From: Pannonibacter phragmitetus DSM 14782
GTDB taxonomy: Bacteria > Pseudomonadota > Alphaproteobacteria > Rhizobiales > Stappiaceae
Reading direction: 5' to 3'
DNA length: 64,000 nucleotides
Assembly (NCBI RefSeq): GCF_000382365.1
Contig: NZ_KB908228.1
Location: forward strand, 62,001 to 126,000
In this document: one piece after another, positions 36,217-45,984 of the stretch
How positions within the stretch are numbered: position 1 is the first letter of the stretch
Layout: the number at the start of each line of letters is the position of its first letter
Position numbers and translations under genes: made by a program
Notes under the pieces: generated by a model
Seen by the model: only the letters and a program-made list of their open reading frames with translations
Database searches by the model: none
Told to the model about the DNA's origin: nothing

Positions 36217-37641
36217 ATGGCGCCAGAGCGGGAGGTCTTCAATGAGATGCTGGGGGCAGACGGGCGGCCGAGGCCGGCCTACGCAAGACTGGCCGAATGG
36301 CTCGACAGCCAGCCGAAAAACTTCCTGACGCGCAAAAGCCGGGAAGCAGAAACAATCTTCAGGCGCCTTGGCATCACCTTTGCCGTCTATGGCGCCCAGG
36401 AGGCGACGGAACGCCTCATCCCCTTCGACCCCATCCCGCGCATCATCTCCGCCGCCGAGTGGCGCCGCCTGTCGGCCGGCATAGAGCAGCGCGTGCGTGC
36501 CCTCAACGCCTTTCTGCATGACATCTACCACAGGCAGGAGATCATCCGCGCCGGGCGGCTGCCGGCCGAACTGATCCTGCAGAACGATGCCTTCCTGCCG
36601 GAAATGGTGGGCTTCACTCCGGCGCGGCGCGTCTATTCGCACATCATCGGCACCGATCTGGTGCGCGTTGGCGAGAATGACTTCTACGTGCTGGAAGACA
36701 ACACGCGCACGCCCTCCGGCGTCTCCTACATGCTGGAGAACCGGGAAACCATGATGCGCATGTTCCCGGATCTGTTCCAGATGCACCGGGTGGCGGCGAT
36801 CGAGCAATATCCGGATCTTCTGCGCCAGACGCTGGAAAGCGTGGCGCCCGACACGACGCGCAAGGAGCCGACGATCTGCATCCTGACGCCGGGCATCTAC
36901 AACTCGGCCTATTTCGAGCACGCCTTCCTTGCCGACCAGATGGGCGTGGAGCTGGTGGAAGGGCGCGATCTCTTCGTCGACAATGGCAAGGTCTGGATGC
37001 GCACCACGCGCCAGCCCAAGCAGGTGGACGTGATCTACCGGCGCATTGACGATGCCTTCCTCGATCCTCTCACCTTCCGCCCGGATTCCATGCTGGGCGT
37101 GCCGGGGCTCTTCGATGCCTACCGGGCAGGCACGGTCACGATCTGCAATGCGCCGGGCACCGGCATTGCCGATGACAAGGCCATCTATGCCTATGTGCCG
37201 GACATCATCGAGTTCTACACCGGCCAGAAGCCGATCCTGAACAACGTGCCGACCTGGAACTGCTCGCGGCCGGACGACTTTGCCTATGTGCTCGACAACC
37301 TCGCCGATATCGTCGTCAAGGAAGTGCATGGCTCGGGCGGCTACGGCATGCTGATCGGCCCGACCGCGTCCAAGCGCGAAATTGCCGCCTTCCGGGAGAT
37401 CCTGAAGGCCAATCCGAAGAACTATATCGCCCAGCCGACCCTGTCGCTGTCTGCCTGCCCCACCCATGTGGCCTCCGGGGTTGCCCCCCGCCACGTGGAC
37501 CTGCGCCCCTATGTCCTGATCGGTGATCAGGTGCGGATCACCCCCGGCGGGCTGACCCGCGTGGCGCTGAAGAAGGGCTCCCTGGTCGTGAATTCGAGCC
37601 AGGGCGGCGGCACCAAGGATACCTGGGTTCTGGAGGACTGA
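36217..37641 (+). CDS. Circularly permuted ATP-grasp protein (DUF404/DUF407)
   Basis: A 474-residue protein of the circularly permuted type 2 ATP-grasp family, predicted to catalyse ATP-dependent amide or peptide ligation. Recognisable blocks: GITFAVYGAQEATERLIPFDPIPRII near residue 50, the stretch FYVLEDNTRTPSGVSYMLENR near residue 160, and ILTPGIYNSAYFEHAFLA. Further on are DVIYRRIDDAFLDPLTF, NVPTWNCSRPDDFAYVL and VVKEVHGSGGYGMLIGP, with the C-terminal FVD-type HVDLRPYVLIG. No signal peptide. First gene of a four-gene unit with alpha-E, transglutaminase and Anbu-type peptidase; the next gene begins 5 bases after its stop. Substrate unknown. Confidence 0.93.
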   Translation: MAPEREVFNEMLGADGRPRPAYARLAEWLDSQPKNFLTRKSREAETIFRRLGITFAVYGAQEATERLIPFDPIPRIISAAEWRRLSAGIEQRVRALNAFLHDIYHRQEIIRAGRLPAELILQNDAFLPEMVGFTPARRVYSHIIGTDLVRVGENDFYVLEDNTRTPSGVSYMLENRETMMRMFPDLFQMHRVAAIEQYPDLLRQTLESVAPDTTRKEPTICILTPGIYNSAYFEHAFLADQMGVELVEGRDLFVDNGKVWMRTTRQPKQVDVIYRRIDDAFLDPLTFRPDSMLGVPGLFDAYRAGTVTICNAPGTGIADDKAIYAYVPDIIEFYTGQKPILNNVPTWNCSRPDDFAYVLDNLADIVVKEVHGSGGYGMLIGPTASKREIAAFREILKANPKNYIAQPTLSLSACPTHVASGVAPRHVDLRPYVLIGDQVRITPGGLTRVALKKGSLVVNSSQGGGTKDTWVLED

Positions 37642-37646
37642 TCATC

Positions 37647-38591
37647 ATGCTCGGCCGCACAGCCGCCTCCCTTTTCTGGATGTCGCGCTACAAGGAGCGC
37701 TCCCACAACACCGCACGCCTGCTGGAAGCGGCATGGCGCACCGCCATGATTCCGCAACAGGGCATGAACGAGGCTGAGGACTGGCGCTCGGCGCTGGCTG
37801 GCTCCGGCTGCGAATCTGCCTTCATGGAGAAATCCGGCGAGGTGACCTCGCGCGCGGTGACGAATTTCATGCTGTTCGACAAGGAGAGCCCCTCCTCCGT
37901 CCGCAACAGTCTGGAGATGGCCCGCAACAACGCCCGCGCCGTGCGCACCGGCATCACGTCCGAACTCTGGGAGGCGATCAACACCACCTGGATCGAATTC
38001 AGCGACGTGAAGCCGCAGACGCTGACGCAGGACAAGCTGCCGGAGTTTCTTGCCTGGATCGGCCAGCGCGCCATGCTGTTCCGCGGTGCGCTGCTGGGCA
38101 CGCTGCTGCGCGATGACGGTTATTCCTTCTCGCAACTCGGCCATTTTGTCGAACGTGCCGACCACACGGCGCGGGTGCTGGATGCCAAATACTGGATCCT
38201 GCTGCCGGTCACCGACATGGCCGGCAAGGGGCACCATCACCAGTGGTCCTCGATCCTGCGCGTCATGTCCGGCCTCAGAAGCTACCGCTTCGCCTTCCCC
38301 AATGCAGAGCTGAAGGCGGCGAATATCGCTGAATTCCTGATCCTGCGCCGGGAGATGCCGCGCTCGCTTGCTCACAGCTACGACTGGCTCAACAGCACGA
38401 TGAACGATCTCACGGCCTTCTATGGCGAGCAGATGCCAAGCGCTCCCCTGGCCGGCGCGATGCAGGAACAGCTCAGGGCCGGACAGATGCGGGATATCTA
38501 CAGCAAGGGCCTGCACGAGTTCCTGGTGGACTTCACCCTCCGGAACAATGCTTTCGCCGACCGGGTCGCCCGTGATTACAATTTTGCCTGA
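37647..38591 (+). CDS. Alpha-E domain protein (DUF403)
   Basis: A 314-residue all-alpha protein of the DUF403/alpha-E family. It starts MLGRTAASLFWMSRYKERSHNTARLLEA, the family's conserved opening. Other conserved parts are LTSELWEAIN-like GITSELWEAINTTW, GTLLRDDGYSFSQLGHFVERADHTARVLDAKY near residue 155 and LILRREMPRSLAHSYDW. Ends in a helix DFTLRNNAFADRVARDY. No catalytic function is known; the family almost always accompanies circularly permuted ATP-grasp proteins and is thought to act with them. Tightly spaced behind the ATP-grasp gene (5 bases) and 32 bases before the transglutaminase gene. Confidence 0.93.
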   Translation: MLGRTAASLFWMSRYKERSHNTARLLEAAWRTAMIPQQGMNEAEDWRSALAGSGCESAFMEKSGEVTSRAVTNFMLFDKESPSSVRNSLEMARNNARAVRTGITSELWEAINTTWIEFSDVKPQTLTQDKLPEFLAWIGQRAMLFRGALLGTLLRDDGYSFSQLGHFVERADHTARVLDAKYWILLPVTDMAGKGHHHQWSSILRVMSGLRSYRFAFPNAELKAANIAEFLILRREMPRSLAHSYDWLNSTMNDLTAFYGEQMPSAPLAGAMQEQLRAGQMRDIYSKGLHEFLVDFTLRNNAFADRVARDYNFA

Positions 38592-38623
38592 TAGAAAAGG
38601 CCGAAGGCAGGAGCCAGCATCCG

Positions 38624-39439
38624 ATGCGCCTGACAGTCCGCCACACAACGCACTACCGTTATGACACGCCGCTCGCCAATGCCATGCAGCAGCTGCGGCT
38701 GACGCCGCCTGCCTGCGCGGGCCAGAACATCATTGACTGGCGCATCGAGGCTCCGGGCATGGACCGCGCAACAACCTACCACGATGCTTTCGGCAATCTG
38801 GTGCACATGATCTCAAGCCGCGAACAGTTGGAGGCCGTTACCATCACCGCCTCCGGCACGGTGGAAACCACCGACCTCAACGGCGTTCTGGGCGAGGAGC
38901 CCGTGGAGACGCCGGTGCGGATCTACACCCGCGTAACACCGCTGACGGAGGCCAACAACGCCATCCGCAGGCTGTCCAGCCTTGTGACGGACGACGACCA
39001 GATCGGCGGCTGCCACGCCCTGATGCACGCGATCCGCGACAAAGTGGGCTACAAGGTGGGCGTCACCGAAACCCATGCCACGGCCATTCAGGTGCTCGCC
39101 GCCGGTGAAGGCGTGTGCCAGGACCACGCCCATATCTTCATCGCTGCTGCCCGTGCCGCCGGAGTGCCTGCCCGCTATGTCTCCGGCTATCTGCTGCTGG
39201 ACGAGGCGCAGGAATCGGAGGCTCATCACGCCTGGGCCGAGGCCTATGTCGAGGGGCTGGGCTGGGTCGGCTTTGATATTTCCAACGGCATTTGCCCGAC
39301 AGAGCGGTATATCCGCTTGACGGCTGGGCTGGACTCGCGTTCCGCTGCTCCGATACGCGGCATCCGGTTCGGCGGCATGGAAGAAAACCTTGATGTTGAG
39401 GTTGATGTGGCCCGCACCGGAAGCCAGCAGCAACAATAA
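38624..39439 (+). CDS. Transglutaminase-like cysteine protease
   Basis: A 271-residue cytosolic protein with an N-terminal bacterial transglutaminase-like region (MRLTVRHTTHYRYDTPLANAMQQLRL, then TTYHDAFGNLVHMI) and a C-terminal transglutaminase core. The papain-like triad is visible: Cys165 in GEGVCQDHAHIF, His202 in HHAWAEAYV, Asp218 in GWVGFDISNG. Such proteins usually hydrolyse rather than form isopeptide or peptide bonds. It sits between the alpha-E and peptidase genes, so it may trim the product of the ATP-grasp ligase or its target. No signal peptide. Confidence 0.93.
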   Translation: MRLTVRHTTHYRYDTPLANAMQQLRLTPPACAGQNIIDWRIEAPGMDRATTYHDAFGNLVHMISSREQLEAVTITASGTVETTDLNGVLGEEPVETPVRIYTRVTPLTEANNAIRRLSSLVTDDDQIGGCHALMHAIRDKVGYKVGVTETHATAIQVLAAGEGVCQDHAHIFIAAARAAGVPARYVSGYLLLDEAQESEAHHAWAEAYVEGLGWVGFDISNGICPTERYIRLTAGLDSRSAAPIRGIRFGGMEENLDVEVDVARTGSQQQQ

Positions 39440-39479
39440 CAGGCCGAAGCGGCCGGATGATGAAGCGGACCCCTTTGCC

Positions 39480-40211
39480 GTGACCTATTGTGTTGGCCTG
39501 AAACTTGACCGTGGTCTCGTCTTTGCTGCCGACACCCGCACCAATGCGGGTGTCGACAATATCGCCACCTTCAAGAAGCTGCATGTCTGGGAAGAGCAGG
39601 GAGAGCGTGTCTTCACCCTGCTGACCGCCGGCAATCTCGCCATCACCCAGTCAGTCGTGTCGATCCTGTCCGAACAGATCGCCTCGCCCACCCTCAACAA
39701 GATCAACCTGATGAGCGTGGACACCATGTTCCAGGCGGCCCGCCTTGTCGGGCAGGCCGTGCGGGATGTGCGGGCACTGGATGGCGATGCACTGGCAGCA
39801 AGCGCGGAGAGCTTCTTCGTCACCTTCATCTTCGGCGGCCAGATTAAGGGCGAGGCGCCGCGCCTGTTCCAGATCTATTCGGCTGGCAATTTCATCGAGG
39901 CCACCGACGACACCATGTTCTTCCAGATCGGCGAGCACAAATATGGCAAGCCGATCCTCGACCGGGTGACCCGCCGCGACATGCGCCTTGGCGCTGCGGC
40001 CAAGATGGCGCTGCTGTCCTTCGATTCCACCCTGCGCTCGAACCTCTCGGTCGGCATGCCCATCGACCTGATGCTCTACAACACGGACAGCTTCACCGCC
40101 CACCGCCAGAAGCGCATCGACCGGGAAGATCCGTACTTCCAGACGCTTTCCTCGGAATGGTCCAACGCCCTGCGCAAAGCGTTCACGGAAATCCCGGAAT
40201 TCGAGATCTGA
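39480..40211 (+). CDS. Anbu-type proteasome-related peptidase
   Basis: Proteasome-like N-terminal nucleophile hydrolase of the Anbu (HslV-related) group, 243 residues. I set the start at the GTG at 39480, so that the protein begins Met-Thr-Tyr-Cys-Val-Gly-Leu. Removal of the initiator Met exposes Thr as the nucleophile, as expected for the family. An upstream frame start at 39390 would add a 30-residue tail from within the transglutaminase gene. Following blocks GLVFAADTRTNAGVDNIATFKKLHVW, FTLLTAGNLAITQSVVSIL and FVTFIFGGQIKGEAPRLFQIYSAGNFIEA are typical. Lys of the active site is probably in FKKLHV. Gap after the preceding gene is 40 bases. No HslU/Clp-type ATPase neighbour. Confidence 0.92.
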   Translation: MTYCVGLKLDRGLVFAADTRTNAGVDNIATFKKLHVWEEQGERVFTLLTAGNLAITQSVVSILSEQIASPTLNKINLMSVDTMFQAARLVGQAVRDVRALDGDALAASAESFFVTFIFGGQIKGEAPRLFQIYSAGNFIEATDDTMFFQIGEHKYGKPILDRVTRRDMRLGAAAKMALLSFDSTLRSNLSVGMPIDLMLYNTDSFTAHRQKRIDREDPYFQTLSSEWSNALRKAFTEIPEFEI

Positions 40212-43590: not shown

Positions 43591-45984
43591 TCAACCTTCC
43601 TGCGGAAGCGGCTCCTCCGCGTGCCTAACGCCGGCCTCACTGATCCGTTCCTCGATAAGGCGCCTCACCACTGGAATCAATGCAGGGTCCGCTTTCAGAT
43701 GCGCGGCCTCTTCATCGACGATGGCCAGGAACAGGTTGCGCCTCAGCCTCTGCTCCTCTTCCGCCTCCAGCACACGGCTGCCGATGGAAGACTGGACGAT
43801 GCGCATCAGCCGGTCCGCCGCCGTCAGCCGGCCCCAGAGATAGTCATGCTCGCGCCAGGAGCGGTTGAAGAAGGCGCCGAAGGTGTTGAGCGCCGATCCC
43901 TTCAGCACGAAGCCCTCATCCAGCAGGGAACTGGCGTCCCGCGGGCTGATCCGGTCGATCAGCGTTTCATTCACTTCCGAAAAATCTGTGCGCTGGAAAA
44001 CGGGCAGCGTCACCAGATCATAGAAGGCAAAGCCCACATAGGCGCGCGTCAGATCCTGCCGCAGGCCCGGCACGAGGTAGGTGAAGGTCATCACCGCGAA
44101 AATATCATCCTGCAGCCGGTCGAGATCCCCCAGCCGCATGTGGGCGCGGATCGCAGCAAGCGCTGCCTCTACCGCCTTCGGACTGTCCTCCGTGGCAAGT
44201 CCGGCTGCCAGTTCGCAAATGTCTTGCGGATAGGCCGCCGCGTTCCAGCAGCGCAGCAGCATGTCGATCTGTTCGTAAAGTTCGCGCTTCAGCGCATCCA
44301 GATCATCCGGCTTCTGCACCGCCACGTCATGGCTGCGGGACTGGTAGAAACTGTTGAGGCGGCGCACCACGAAGCGCAGGCGGCGGATGCGGTAGTCTGC
44401 GTCCAGCCCCTTCAGCAGGCTGATCATGGCCTGCGAGGAACCGAAGTTGCCCGCCTCCATGGCCTCCGGCAGACCTGCCTTCAGGCGGGAAAGCACATCG
44501 TCCAGATCAAGCTCTGCGCCTGCCCTTGCAGCCAGCTCGCAGATCAGTCCCGCCAGCCGCTCGGCCAGTGCCTCCACCTTCAGGGTCTGATAGCTGAGAT
44601 AGGCATAGCCCGCCTGCACATGGGCGGCCTCGTTCGCCTTGACCCGGCAACGGGTCAGTTCTTCGATGGTCAGCGGCTGAGTGGAGACGGCCGGCAGAAT
44701 GCGCCCGACCTCCGCCTCCACCAGCGGATCGGTGGCGGCAATCACCTCGGCAAGGCGCCGTGCCCGCCGGTTGCGCGCCTCGATGGCCTTGAGGTCATCG
44801 CCCACGGGCTCGTTGCGTGGGATATGCGCGAGCGAAGACAGGATCACTCGGAAGAAGCCCGGCACAGTGTCACCATTGCCGTTCGGCCCCACGCCCTTGC
44901 CGTTGAAGGGCACAGGGTCCACATAGACCAGCCGCCGGGCGACCTCCCGGGTGGCGGGCCGCTCGTCTATCGCCTCGATCACCGGGCCGAAAGGCTTGTT
45001 CATCACAACGCTGCCATCGACAAAGCAGCGCCGCTCCACATCATCCACCGGCCCGCCAAGCGTACCGGACAGGAAGCTCTCGCGTGTCTCCCAGGCCTCG
45101 CCCCTCTCTGCCAGCAGTCTGTCCATCTCCCCCACCGTTGCGGGCGGAAAGGCGCCGGGGAAAGAGGACGTCGCACGGGCGGCAAAGACGAGGCCGGGAA
45201 TGTGGCGCGGGGTGAAGCTGCTGTCCAGAACGCCCGGCATGCGGTGCTCGCAGGAAAAGCGCAGGATGCGCCGGTGTTCCCGCTCCTCGATGAAAGCCGG
45301 TTCATCAATGCGGATGCGCTGGCGGCGGCCGTAGTAATCGGTCAGGGTGACGAACAGCTCCAGCTTCTGTCCGCGCGGCACCAGCGTTGCGCCCTCGCGC
45401 CAGCTGGCATCCATGGCGTGGCAGGCATCCAGCATCCAGCCGCTGTAACGCGAACCGGAAAACGGCGGAGTAAACCAGCGAGACTGGGTGAGAAGGCGCA
45501 GTTTGTCGCGGGTCTCCGGACTGTCGATCTGCGCCTTCAGGCCGGAGGTGATCAGCCGGTCGATCACCGGCGACATGCCGCTCTTCAGATAGCGGGTGAT
45601 GCCATCCTGCGGCTTTGCCAGCCGCGTCACATCGGCGTTTTCAAGCCACAGGTCCCGGTGCGCATCAAGCGGCAGATCATGGGCGATGGCGCGGGCCAGC
45701 ATCACCCCGTTGACGCCGCCCGCCGACGCCCCGGCAATGGCATCCACCACCACGCGGACATTCACATCCGGCTCATAGGCGCGCAGCACATCCAGATAGG
45801 CGCGTGTCGAGGGAGAGAGGGTTCCGGCCGCCGCATCCTCCGCCGCCTCCAGCGGATCACGCGATGCGTTGAGACTGGAGGCCTTGACGAGGTTGAGGAT
45901 TTCCCGGCTGACGCCGTGCATGTAGATGGCAAGGGACACACCGCCATAGAACACAAGCGCGAGGCGGATCTCGATCTGCTTCAT
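43591..45984 (-). CDS. Patatin-like phospholipase with DUF3376
   Basis: Large patatin-like protein, 797 residues. The N-terminal catalytic patatin domain has the glycine-rich FYGGVSLAIYMHG oxyanion loop at residues 12-24. The nucleophile elbow is GASAG with Ser87, and the dyad Asp323 is in FVDGSVVMNKPF. After about residue 400 comes the helical DUF3376-type region with KANEAAHVQAGYAYLSYQTLK and VPGLRQDLTRAYVGFAFYD. No signal peptide or transmembrane segment, so a cytosolic or membrane-peripheral acyl hydrolase is likely. Substrate unknown. It lies downstream of rarA (95-base gap) and 4 bases upstream of crcB. Confidence 0.9.
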   Translation of the reverse strand: MKQIEIRLALVFYGGVSLAIYMHGVSREILNLVKASSLNASRDPLEAAEDAAAGTLSPSTRAYLDVLRAYEPDVNVRVVVDAIAGASAGGVNGVMLARAIAHDLPLDAHRDLWLENADVTRLAKPQDGITRYLKSGMSPVIDRLITSGLKAQIDSPETRDKLRLLTQSRWFTPPFSGSRYSGWMLDACHAMDASWREGATLVPRGQKLELFVTLTDYYGRRQRIRIDEPAFIEEREHRRILRFSCEHRMPGVLDSSFTPRHIPGLVFAARATSSFPGAFPPATVGEMDRLLAERGEAWETRESFLSGTLGGPVDDVERRCFVDGSVVMNKPFGPVIEAIDERPATREVARRLVYVDPVPFNGKGVGPNGNGDTVPGFFRVILSSLAHIPRNEPVGDDLKAIEARNRRARRLAEVIAATDPLVEAEVGRILPAVSTQPLTIEELTRCRVKANEAAHVQAGYAYLSYQTLKVEALAERLAGLICELAARAGAELDLDDVLSRLKAGLPEAMEAGNFGSSQAMISLLKGLDADYRIRRLRFVVRRLNSFYQSRSHDVAVQKPDDLDALKRELYEQIDMLLRCWNAAAYPQDICELAAGLATEDSPKAVEAALAAIRAHMRLGDLDRLQDDIFAVMTFTYLVPGLRQDLTRAYVGFAFYDLVTLPVFQRTDFSEVNETLIDRISPRDASSLLDEGFVLKGSALNTFGAFFNRSWREHDYLWGRLTAADRLMRIVQSSIGSRVLEAEEEQRLRRNLFLAIVDEEAAHLKADPALIPVVRRLIEERISEAGVRHAEEPLPQEG

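What the first reader, a model, noticed from the sequence alone, without database searches (positions are those of the whole stretch)
36217..40211. Four-gene Anbu-type cassette: ATP-grasp, alpha-E, transglutaminase and proteasome-like peptidase
The genes are co-directional, with gaps of 5, 32 and 40 bases, and have no other genes mixed in. The set joins a predicted peptide/amide ligase (circularly permuted ATP-grasp), its usual alpha-E partner, a transglutaminase-like cysteine hydrolase with full triad (Cys165, His202, Asp218) and a Thr-nucleophile Anbu peptidase. Comparative genomics has linked these families before, but their substrate, and whether the ligase makes a tag or a metabolite for the protease, is not established. 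No partner ATPase lies nearby, so the peptidase may work without an unfoldase. It is the best candidate in the window for a little-described system.
Basis: partly seen in the sequence, partly recalled or inferred. Interest (0 to 1): 0.75.

Follow-up and report, generated by a model that had tools for sequence, protein, structure and literature searches.

The report
Known Anbu protease operon, new copy
This is one more copy of a four-gene bacterial operon already in print, which pairs a predicted bond-making enzyme and its helper with a transglutaminase-like enzyme and a proteasome-like protein, and whose job is still unknown.

Summary
Catalytic residues tested are intact. The system is not new: the same operon in the same order, two Anbu crystal-structure papers and an ATP-grasp assay are in print (PMC5666114, PMC6376114). 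This is a new member, in a Pannonibacter-like alphaproteobacterium. Further results: (1) in 190 Alphaproteobacteria, 53 of 54 genomes with Anbu also encode Alpha-E. (2) Sigma-54-type promoters precede 8 of 35 other alphaproteobacterial cassettes and 4 of 15 from other Pseudomonadota, far above chance, but not the window's. (3) A distant Anbu type sits beside clpS in 14 of 22 genomes, and in 19 of 22 Alpha-E directly precedes a Bpt-like gene, both N-degron genes; controls point to single old insertions kept by descent, so this is only a lead. (4) A review lists an antinematode metagenomic clone credited to an ATP-grasp/alpha-E/transglutaminase/protease gene set. Best guess: a nitrogen-linked amide-ligase/hydrolase module that makes and trims a peptide-like product (confidence 0.4).

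The parts
36217..37641 (+). Circularly permuted ATP-grasp (CP_ATPgrasp_2), predicted amide/peptide ligase, 474 aa
   Evidence: Pfam 1.7e-170; full-length match to solved chain 3n6x_A, 'putative glutathionylspermidine synthase', E 6.2e-202; many positions conserved at 97% or more in 85 sequences, incl. E160, D161, N162, D319, D320, K321, K368, G374, G375 and the C-terminal SSQGGG.KDTW
37647..38591 (+). Alpha-E protein, 314 aa, all-helical in the model; conserved ER motif (E17 R18) and further conserved Arg/Glu
   Evidence: Pfam 2e-81; no PDB sequence match up to E 1; model mean pLDDT 87.9, best Foldseek PDB match E 0.46
38624..39439 (+). Transglutaminase-like cysteine enzyme, 271 aa, triad C165-H202-D218
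   Evidence: Pfam; 3isr_A E 5e-12 over the C-terminal half; conservation
39480..40211 (+). Anbu (Anbu-1 type), proteasome beta-like Thr-nucleophile protein, 243 aa, GTG start
   Evidence: PDB Anbu chain 5nyj_A E 8.4e-103, also 5nyf, 5loy, 5nyw, 5lox; T1, D17, R19, K32; S1-pocket positions T20 F30 T48 L52 T55

Best explanation
An Anbu-1 operon that makes and processes an amide-linked, peptide-like small product. ATP-grasp, with Alpha-E as its constant partner, activates a carboxylate with ATP and joins it to an amine (phosphate release from ATP shown for a homologue in print; ligation inferred). The transglutaminase-like enzyme and the Anbu ring then transfer, trim or recycle that product (inferred). 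In many relatives the operon is probably switched on under nitrogen limitation through sigma-54/NtrC (expression in print for related clusters; promoter signature shown here); the window copy lacks the signature, so its control is unknown. Shown here: the four genes, their intact active sites, conserved linkage, and that in the Alphaproteobacteria sampled Anbu goes with Alpha-E in the same genome. Inferred: substrate, product and the role of Anbu.
For: Family assignments and conserved active sites. ATP-grasp and Alpha-E adjacent at 34 of 45 Anbu-1 loci, strict four-gene order at 23 of 45. Alpha-E in 53 of 54 genomes with Anbu, while 17 further genomes of the 190 have Alpha-E without Anbu, so the ligase pair looks like the core and Anbu the dependent part. 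Sigma-54 sites before 8 of 35 other alphaproteobacterial cassettes and 4 of 15 of other Pseudomonadota (5 of 29 families, P 4.5e-5). NtrC-dependent expression of an ATP-grasp/DUF403/transglutaminase cluster in B. cenocepacia (PMC5491218, passages). Homologous ATP-grasp releases phosphate from ATP (PMC6376114). Review table row: antinematode heterologous clone, responsible genes 'ATP-grasp protein/alpha-E protein/transglutaminase protein/protease' (PMC7764037, passages), which fits a product-making operon.
Against: No product or substrate is known. PMC5666114 argues that a ring of many identical sites and inhibitor binding favour protein degradation and make peptide synthesis less likely, and says that expression of the operon proteins does not change under various conditions other than nitrogen limitation. 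The window has no sigma-54 site (best 7 of 13), nor do its closest relatives beyond chance (1 of 34). The antinematode row cites a thesis I could not read and names a 'protease', not Anbu. The NtrC-controlled B. cenocepacia cluster shows a second, large transglutaminase protein, not Anbu, in the passages seen. Lone Anbu genes exist, one in this very genome.
Confidence: 0.4

Rival explanations
1. Tag-and-degrade system: ATP-grasp/Alpha-E attach an amino acid or short tag to proteins and Anbu degrades or detags them, in place of ubiquitin/Pup.
For: Idea in print (PMC6376114). Thr1 of P. aeruginosa Anbu binds epoxomicin and MG132 (PMC5666114). A distant Anbu type lies near clpS in 14 of 22 genomes, and Alpha-E directly before a Bpt-like gene in 19 of 22.
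Against: No ClpS/ClpA or Bpt match in the Anbu-1 loci searched; no peptidase activity and no complex with operon partners in print; the clpS and Bpt neighbourhoods look like single insertions in old gene blocks.
Confidence: 0.25
2. Nitrogen-starvation turnover: Anbu hydrolyses proteins or peptides non-specifically and the transglutaminase-like enzyme releases ammonia; the ligase stores or re-uses the amino acids.
For: Sigma-54 promoter signature in many relatives; nitrogen-limitation expression in print.
Against: Window copy and its closest relatives lack the signature (1 of 34, at chance); no peptidase activity of Anbu on the substrates tested in print.
Confidence: 0.25
3. Neighbours by chance: the four genes share a promoter but not a pathway.
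For: Seven of 45 Anbu-1 loci have ATP-grasp, Alpha-E and Anbu without a transglutaminase between them, and six Anbu genes stand alone; no stable complex in print.
Against: Same order in Alphaproteobacteria and other Pseudomonadota; Anbu goes with Alpha-E in the genome also when unlinked (11 of 11 genomes with the distant type).
Confidence: 0.08

Closest known systems
Anbu operon as described for Yersinia bercovieri and Pseudomonas aeruginosa (PMC6376114; PMC5666114)
   Same: Same four genes in the same order, Anbu-1 type with T1, D17, K32; best PDB matches are solved Anbu chains
   Different: Another species; the window genome has a second, lone Anbu (49% identical) and its cassette has no sigma-54 site
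Amidoligase systems with circularly permuted ATP-grasp and Alpha-E (Iyer et al. 2009, not held; seen only as cited in papers read)
   Same: ATP-grasp plus Alpha-E, transglutaminase
   Different: Anbu present; none of the ten flanking ORFs scanned carries DUF2126
HslUV and bacterial 20S proteasome with AAA+ partner
   Same: Beta-type Thr-nucleophile subunit
   Different: No AAA+ gene among the ten flanking ORFs scanned; HslU of this genome lies on another contig

Membership tests
Anbu-1 operon | Order ATP-grasp, Alpha-E, transglutaminase, Anbu, one strand | tested here: met
Anbu (Anbu-1) | Thr directly after start Met, catalytic D17 and K32, no propeptide | tested here: met
Anbu (Anbu-1) | S1 pocket T20, F30, T48, L52, S55 as in Pa-Anbu (PMC5666114) | tested here: met
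   Four of five identical; position 55 is Thr, a conservative change (by position without an alignment to Pa-Anbu)
Anbu (Anbu-1) | Open dodecameric split ring | not testable with these tools
   Needs purified protein
CP ATP-grasp | Full-length permuted ATP-grasp profile | tested here: met
CP ATP-grasp | ATP-binding residues intact | tested here: inconclusive
   Candidate residues are conserved in 85 sequences, but which of them bind ATP is recalled and was not mapped on a structure
CP ATP-grasp | Forms an amide bond | not testable with these tools
   Only phosphate release is in print for a homologue
Transglutaminase-like superfamily | Cys-His-Asp triad | tested here: met
AAA+ self-compartmentalising protease (HslUV type) | Unfoldase gene beside the peptidase | tested here: not met
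   (ten flanking ORFs)
Sigma-54-controlled operon | -24/-12 element upstream of the first gene | tested here: not met
   Window best 7 of 13; closest relatives with the window 1 of 34
N-degron pathway component | Linkage to Bpt or ClpS | tested here: not met
   In this genome Bpt is on contig C1 and ClpS about 85 kb away on the window's contig; linkage seen only in genomes with the distant Anbu type, plus one convergent case without Anbu (L201)

The most novel reading that the evidence does not exclude
In one alphaproteobacterial lineage the ATP-grasp/Alpha-E pair and a distant, Anbu-2-like protein are wired into the N-degron pathway. Alpha-E is followed by a Bpt-like aminoacyl-tRNA-protein transferase gene (19 of 22 genomes), and the Anbu gene stands near clpS and clpA (14 of 22). 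The ligase would then modify protein termini before or instead of Bpt, with Anbu trimming what ClpS/ClpA present, or cutting proteins to expose N-degrons.
Probability: 0.1. Interest if true: 0.75.

Novelty: new member of a known kind. Interest (0 to 1): 0.35.

Why it matters
The Anbu operon is an unsolved piece of proteasome evolution with structures but no function. The counts here suggest an order among its parts: ATP-grasp/Alpha-E as the core, Anbu going with them, the transglutaminase missing from 7 of the 34 loci that have the other three together (copies elsewhere in those genomes were not sought). They point to nitrogen limitation as the condition to assay in, name loci where the promoter signature is strong, and bring up two leads: an antinematode clone credited to genes of these names, and the Bpt/ClpS neighbourhood of the distant Anbu type. 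Each makes a stalled question testable with gene removals in laboratory strains.

Tried and rejected
Sigma-70 promoter and terminator scan of the region: at or below chance, no use. NCBIfam gave no family for three of the four proteins and, for Anbu, one match far below its cut-off. Fold comparison of the Alpha-E model gave no match better than E 0.46, with low TM-scores, so no fold relation is claimed. The conserved ATP-grasp C-terminal tail was considered as a docking tail for Anbu; it is also conserved at Alpha-E loci of genomes without Anbu (L146-L151), so this was dropped. A plasmid search with a distant-type Anbu gave 25 records at 29.5-37.2% identity, in my reading none of that type; nothing followed. 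The distant-type/clpS link was first thought to be functional evidence. The window genome has the same DacA/phasin-clpS-clpA block without Anbu (L154), and in four of six control Bpt loci MotB lies directly next to Bpt without ATP-grasp/Alpha-E (L186, L197, L199, L200 yes; L155, L198 no MotB found). So it was demoted to a lead. No survey of other phyla was made, so independent recurrence could not be tested.
Full report
What is there. Four co-directional genes occupy 36217-40211. Pfam gives CP_ATPgrasp_2, Alpha-E, Bact_transglu_N plus Transglut_core, and Proteasome. The last is Anbu: the five PDB sequences matched are Anbu or 'peptidase' chains (5nyj, 5nyf, 5loy, 5nyw, 5lox). The ATP-grasp matches 3n6x over nearly its whole length, the transglutaminase-like protein matches 3isr over residues 135-259, and Alpha-E has no PDB sequence match up to E 1. 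The stated gaps and the Cys165/His202/Asp218 triad are right. The gene before (carboxyltransferase) and the genes after (ATP12 chaperone, HAD hydrolase, pseudouridine synthase, CrcB, patatin-like) are on the minus strand.

Where it is. The window is part of contig C14 of a 4.78 Mb genome. The nearest named record found is Pannonibacter indicus DSM 23407, Anbu 98% identical. The genome holds one CP ATP-grasp and one Alpha-E match but a second Anbu, 49% identical, without the other genes and between rpsD- and ttcA-like genes as I read the ORFs. HslU is on contig C2, Bpt on C1, and ClpS on C14 about 85 kb from the cassette.

It is known. [quoted passage not shown] PMC5666114 (passages and sections 13 and 14) describes the split-ring structure, epoxomicin and MG132 binding to Thr1, two Anbu subtypes, and absence of an AAA+ partner. 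PMC8665760 (passages) says that no function is known for Anbu. Iyer 2009, Valas and Bourne 2008 and Hervas 2008 were not held.

Census. In 190 Alphaproteobacteria drawn evenly, 54 genomes have Anbu (one of them, G075, by a fragment) and 70 have Alpha-E. The overlap is 53. The exception, G147, probably has its cassette cut: its transglutaminase gene starts at base 45 of the contig (L078). Fisher P 8e-31, ignoring relatedness; within the 115 genomes that carry Bpt the table is 52/1/14/48. I fetched all 57 Anbu places outside the window genome: 45 of the window's type (Anbu-1, L075-L119), 11 of a distant type (L120-L130), one fragment (L131). Of the 45, by my reading: 23 strict four-gene order on one strand; 3 the same with more than 1 kb before Anbu (L076, L092, L109); 1 with Anbu on the other strand (L091); 7 ATP-grasp/Alpha-E/Anbu with no transglutaminase between (L080, L086, L087, L088, L098, L107, L112); 2 with Anbu near a transglutaminase-like gene only (L108, L113); 3 cut by a contig end (L078, L114, L115); 6 alone (L079, L094, L104, L117, L118, L119, the last three being second copies). 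The 37 nearest loci are, by selection, nearly all full (36 of 37; L025 is cut). Of 18 loci outside the class that I picked from the 398-genome phylum sample (144 of 398 have Anbu), 12 are full, 1 lacks the transglutaminase, 1 is rearranged and 4 are alone.

Active sites. Across 83 transglutaminase, 85 ATP-grasp, 85 Alpha-E and 114 Anbu sequences the catalytic positions are conserved; many rows are close relatives. Alpha-E keeps R14, E17, R18, R93, R100, E169, R170, R176 and PRS 238-240 in 97% or more, which looks like a ligand site (inference). Its model is confident (mean pLDDT 87.9) but matches no solved fold at a useful level.

Promoters. I scanned for the recalled sigma-54 -24/-12 element in the 300 bases before the ATP-grasp gene, scored 0-13 with 11 as cut-off, against random 300-mers of the same loci. 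Other alphaproteobacterial cassettes: 8 of 35 (null 0.7%, P 1e-10). Other Pseudomonadota: 4 of 15 (null 1.7%, P 1e-4). The window with its closest relatives: 1 of 34 (null 0.6%, P 0.18). ATP-grasp loci of genomes with the distant Anbu: 0 of 22. Ten other ATP-grasp loci (L143-L151, L201; three are second copies in distant-type genomes): 0 of 10. Counting families once, 5 of 29 have a site, P 4.5e-5 at twice the null rate (34 loci labelled, L039 and L041 left out). The window's best is 7 of 13. This fits print: a cluster of ATP-grasp, DUF403 and transglutaminase genes is strongly down in an ntrC mutant of B. cenocepacia (PMC5491218, passages), a table lists an RpoN-type site before a CP_ATPgrasp_1 gene in Bradyrhizobium (PMC13207237, passage), and Anbu is up in nitrogen-limited P. 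putida (as cited).

Distant Anbu type. These proteins (31-36% identical to the window's) carry a basic stretch, SGLRSxRDK, where PMC5666114 describes a basic S1 pocket for Anbu-2. I call them Anbu-2-like without a clustering test. In the 385-genome class sample 22 genomes have one. A phasin gene is close by in 20 of 22, a DacA-like gene within 7 kb in 15, and clpS (with clpA) within 2 kb in 14. In the same genomes ATP-grasp and Alpha-E lie elsewhere, directly followed on the same strand by a Bpt/ATE gene in 19 of 22, aligned ends 41-253 bases apart. Misses: G035 and G735; G112 cannot be judged because both genes sit at contig ends. No ClpS, ClpA or Bpt match was found in the Anbu-1 loci searched (L006-L043, L075-L119, L156-L173, about 7-8 kb either side where the contig allows). 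Controls weaken the link: the window genome keeps the DacA/phasin-clpS-clpA block without Anbu (L154); MotB lies directly next to Bpt in four of six control loci (L186, L197, L199, L200; not L155, L198); and MotB is also kept upstream of ATP-grasp in 14 of the 19. So each neighbourhood is best read as one old insertion kept by descent. What remains odd is that both halves of one system came to lie beside N-degron genes. One genome without Anbu (G012) has ATP-grasp/Alpha-E/transglutaminase convergent with Bpt (L201). A search for Anbu with ClpS and proteasome found no paper, and none of the ten papers listed (of 18) for N-degron terms holds the word Anbu.

Antinematode lead. Table 2 of PMC7764037 (passages) lists a heterologous clone, jj117, of an Ulva australis metagenomic library among antinematode activities, responsible genes 'ATP-grasp protein/alpha-E protein/transglutaminase protein/protease', compound unknown, citing a 2019 thesis. 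If the protease is Anbu, this would be the only activity of the whole operon that I met in my searches, and it favours a product-making role.

Judgement. A new copy of a known, unsolved operon. The product-making reading leads by a small margin; tagging and turnover readings remain open. The statistics ignore relatedness except where families were counted once.

Noticed in passing
G000 contig C5:195747-196457 (L006:7733-8458): A second, lone Anbu gene in the window's genome, 49% identical, with no ATP-grasp or Alpha-E beside it; L085 and L104 share some of its neighbours, and L085 has a full cassette there, so it may be the remnant of one.
   Followed up: partly
L121-L123, L125, L127-L129, L174, L177-L179, L181-L183: Anbu-2-like gene within 2 kb of clpS-clpA in these 14 of 22 genomes that carry this type.
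   Followed up: yes
L132, L133, L135-L138, L140-L142 and L187-L196: ATP-grasp/Alpha-E pair directly before a Bpt/ATE gene, same strand, in these 19 of 22 genomes with the distant Anbu type.
   Followed up: yes
L108, L112, L113, L134, L143, L145: Transglutaminase match in a large open frame (923-1187 aa; DUF2126 confirmed for L134 only) near ATP-grasp/Alpha-E or Anbu genes; in L134, L143, L144 and L145 ATP-grasp and Alpha-E matches share one open frame of 810-928 aa.
   Followed up: partly
window 43591-45984: Minus-strand 797-aa protein with patatin-like and DUF3376 domains.
   Followed up: no
PMC7764037, Table 2: Antinematode metagenomic clone jj117 credited to an ATP-grasp/alpha-E/transglutaminase/protease gene set; this review did not come up in my searches for Anbu with proteasome.
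   Followed up: partly
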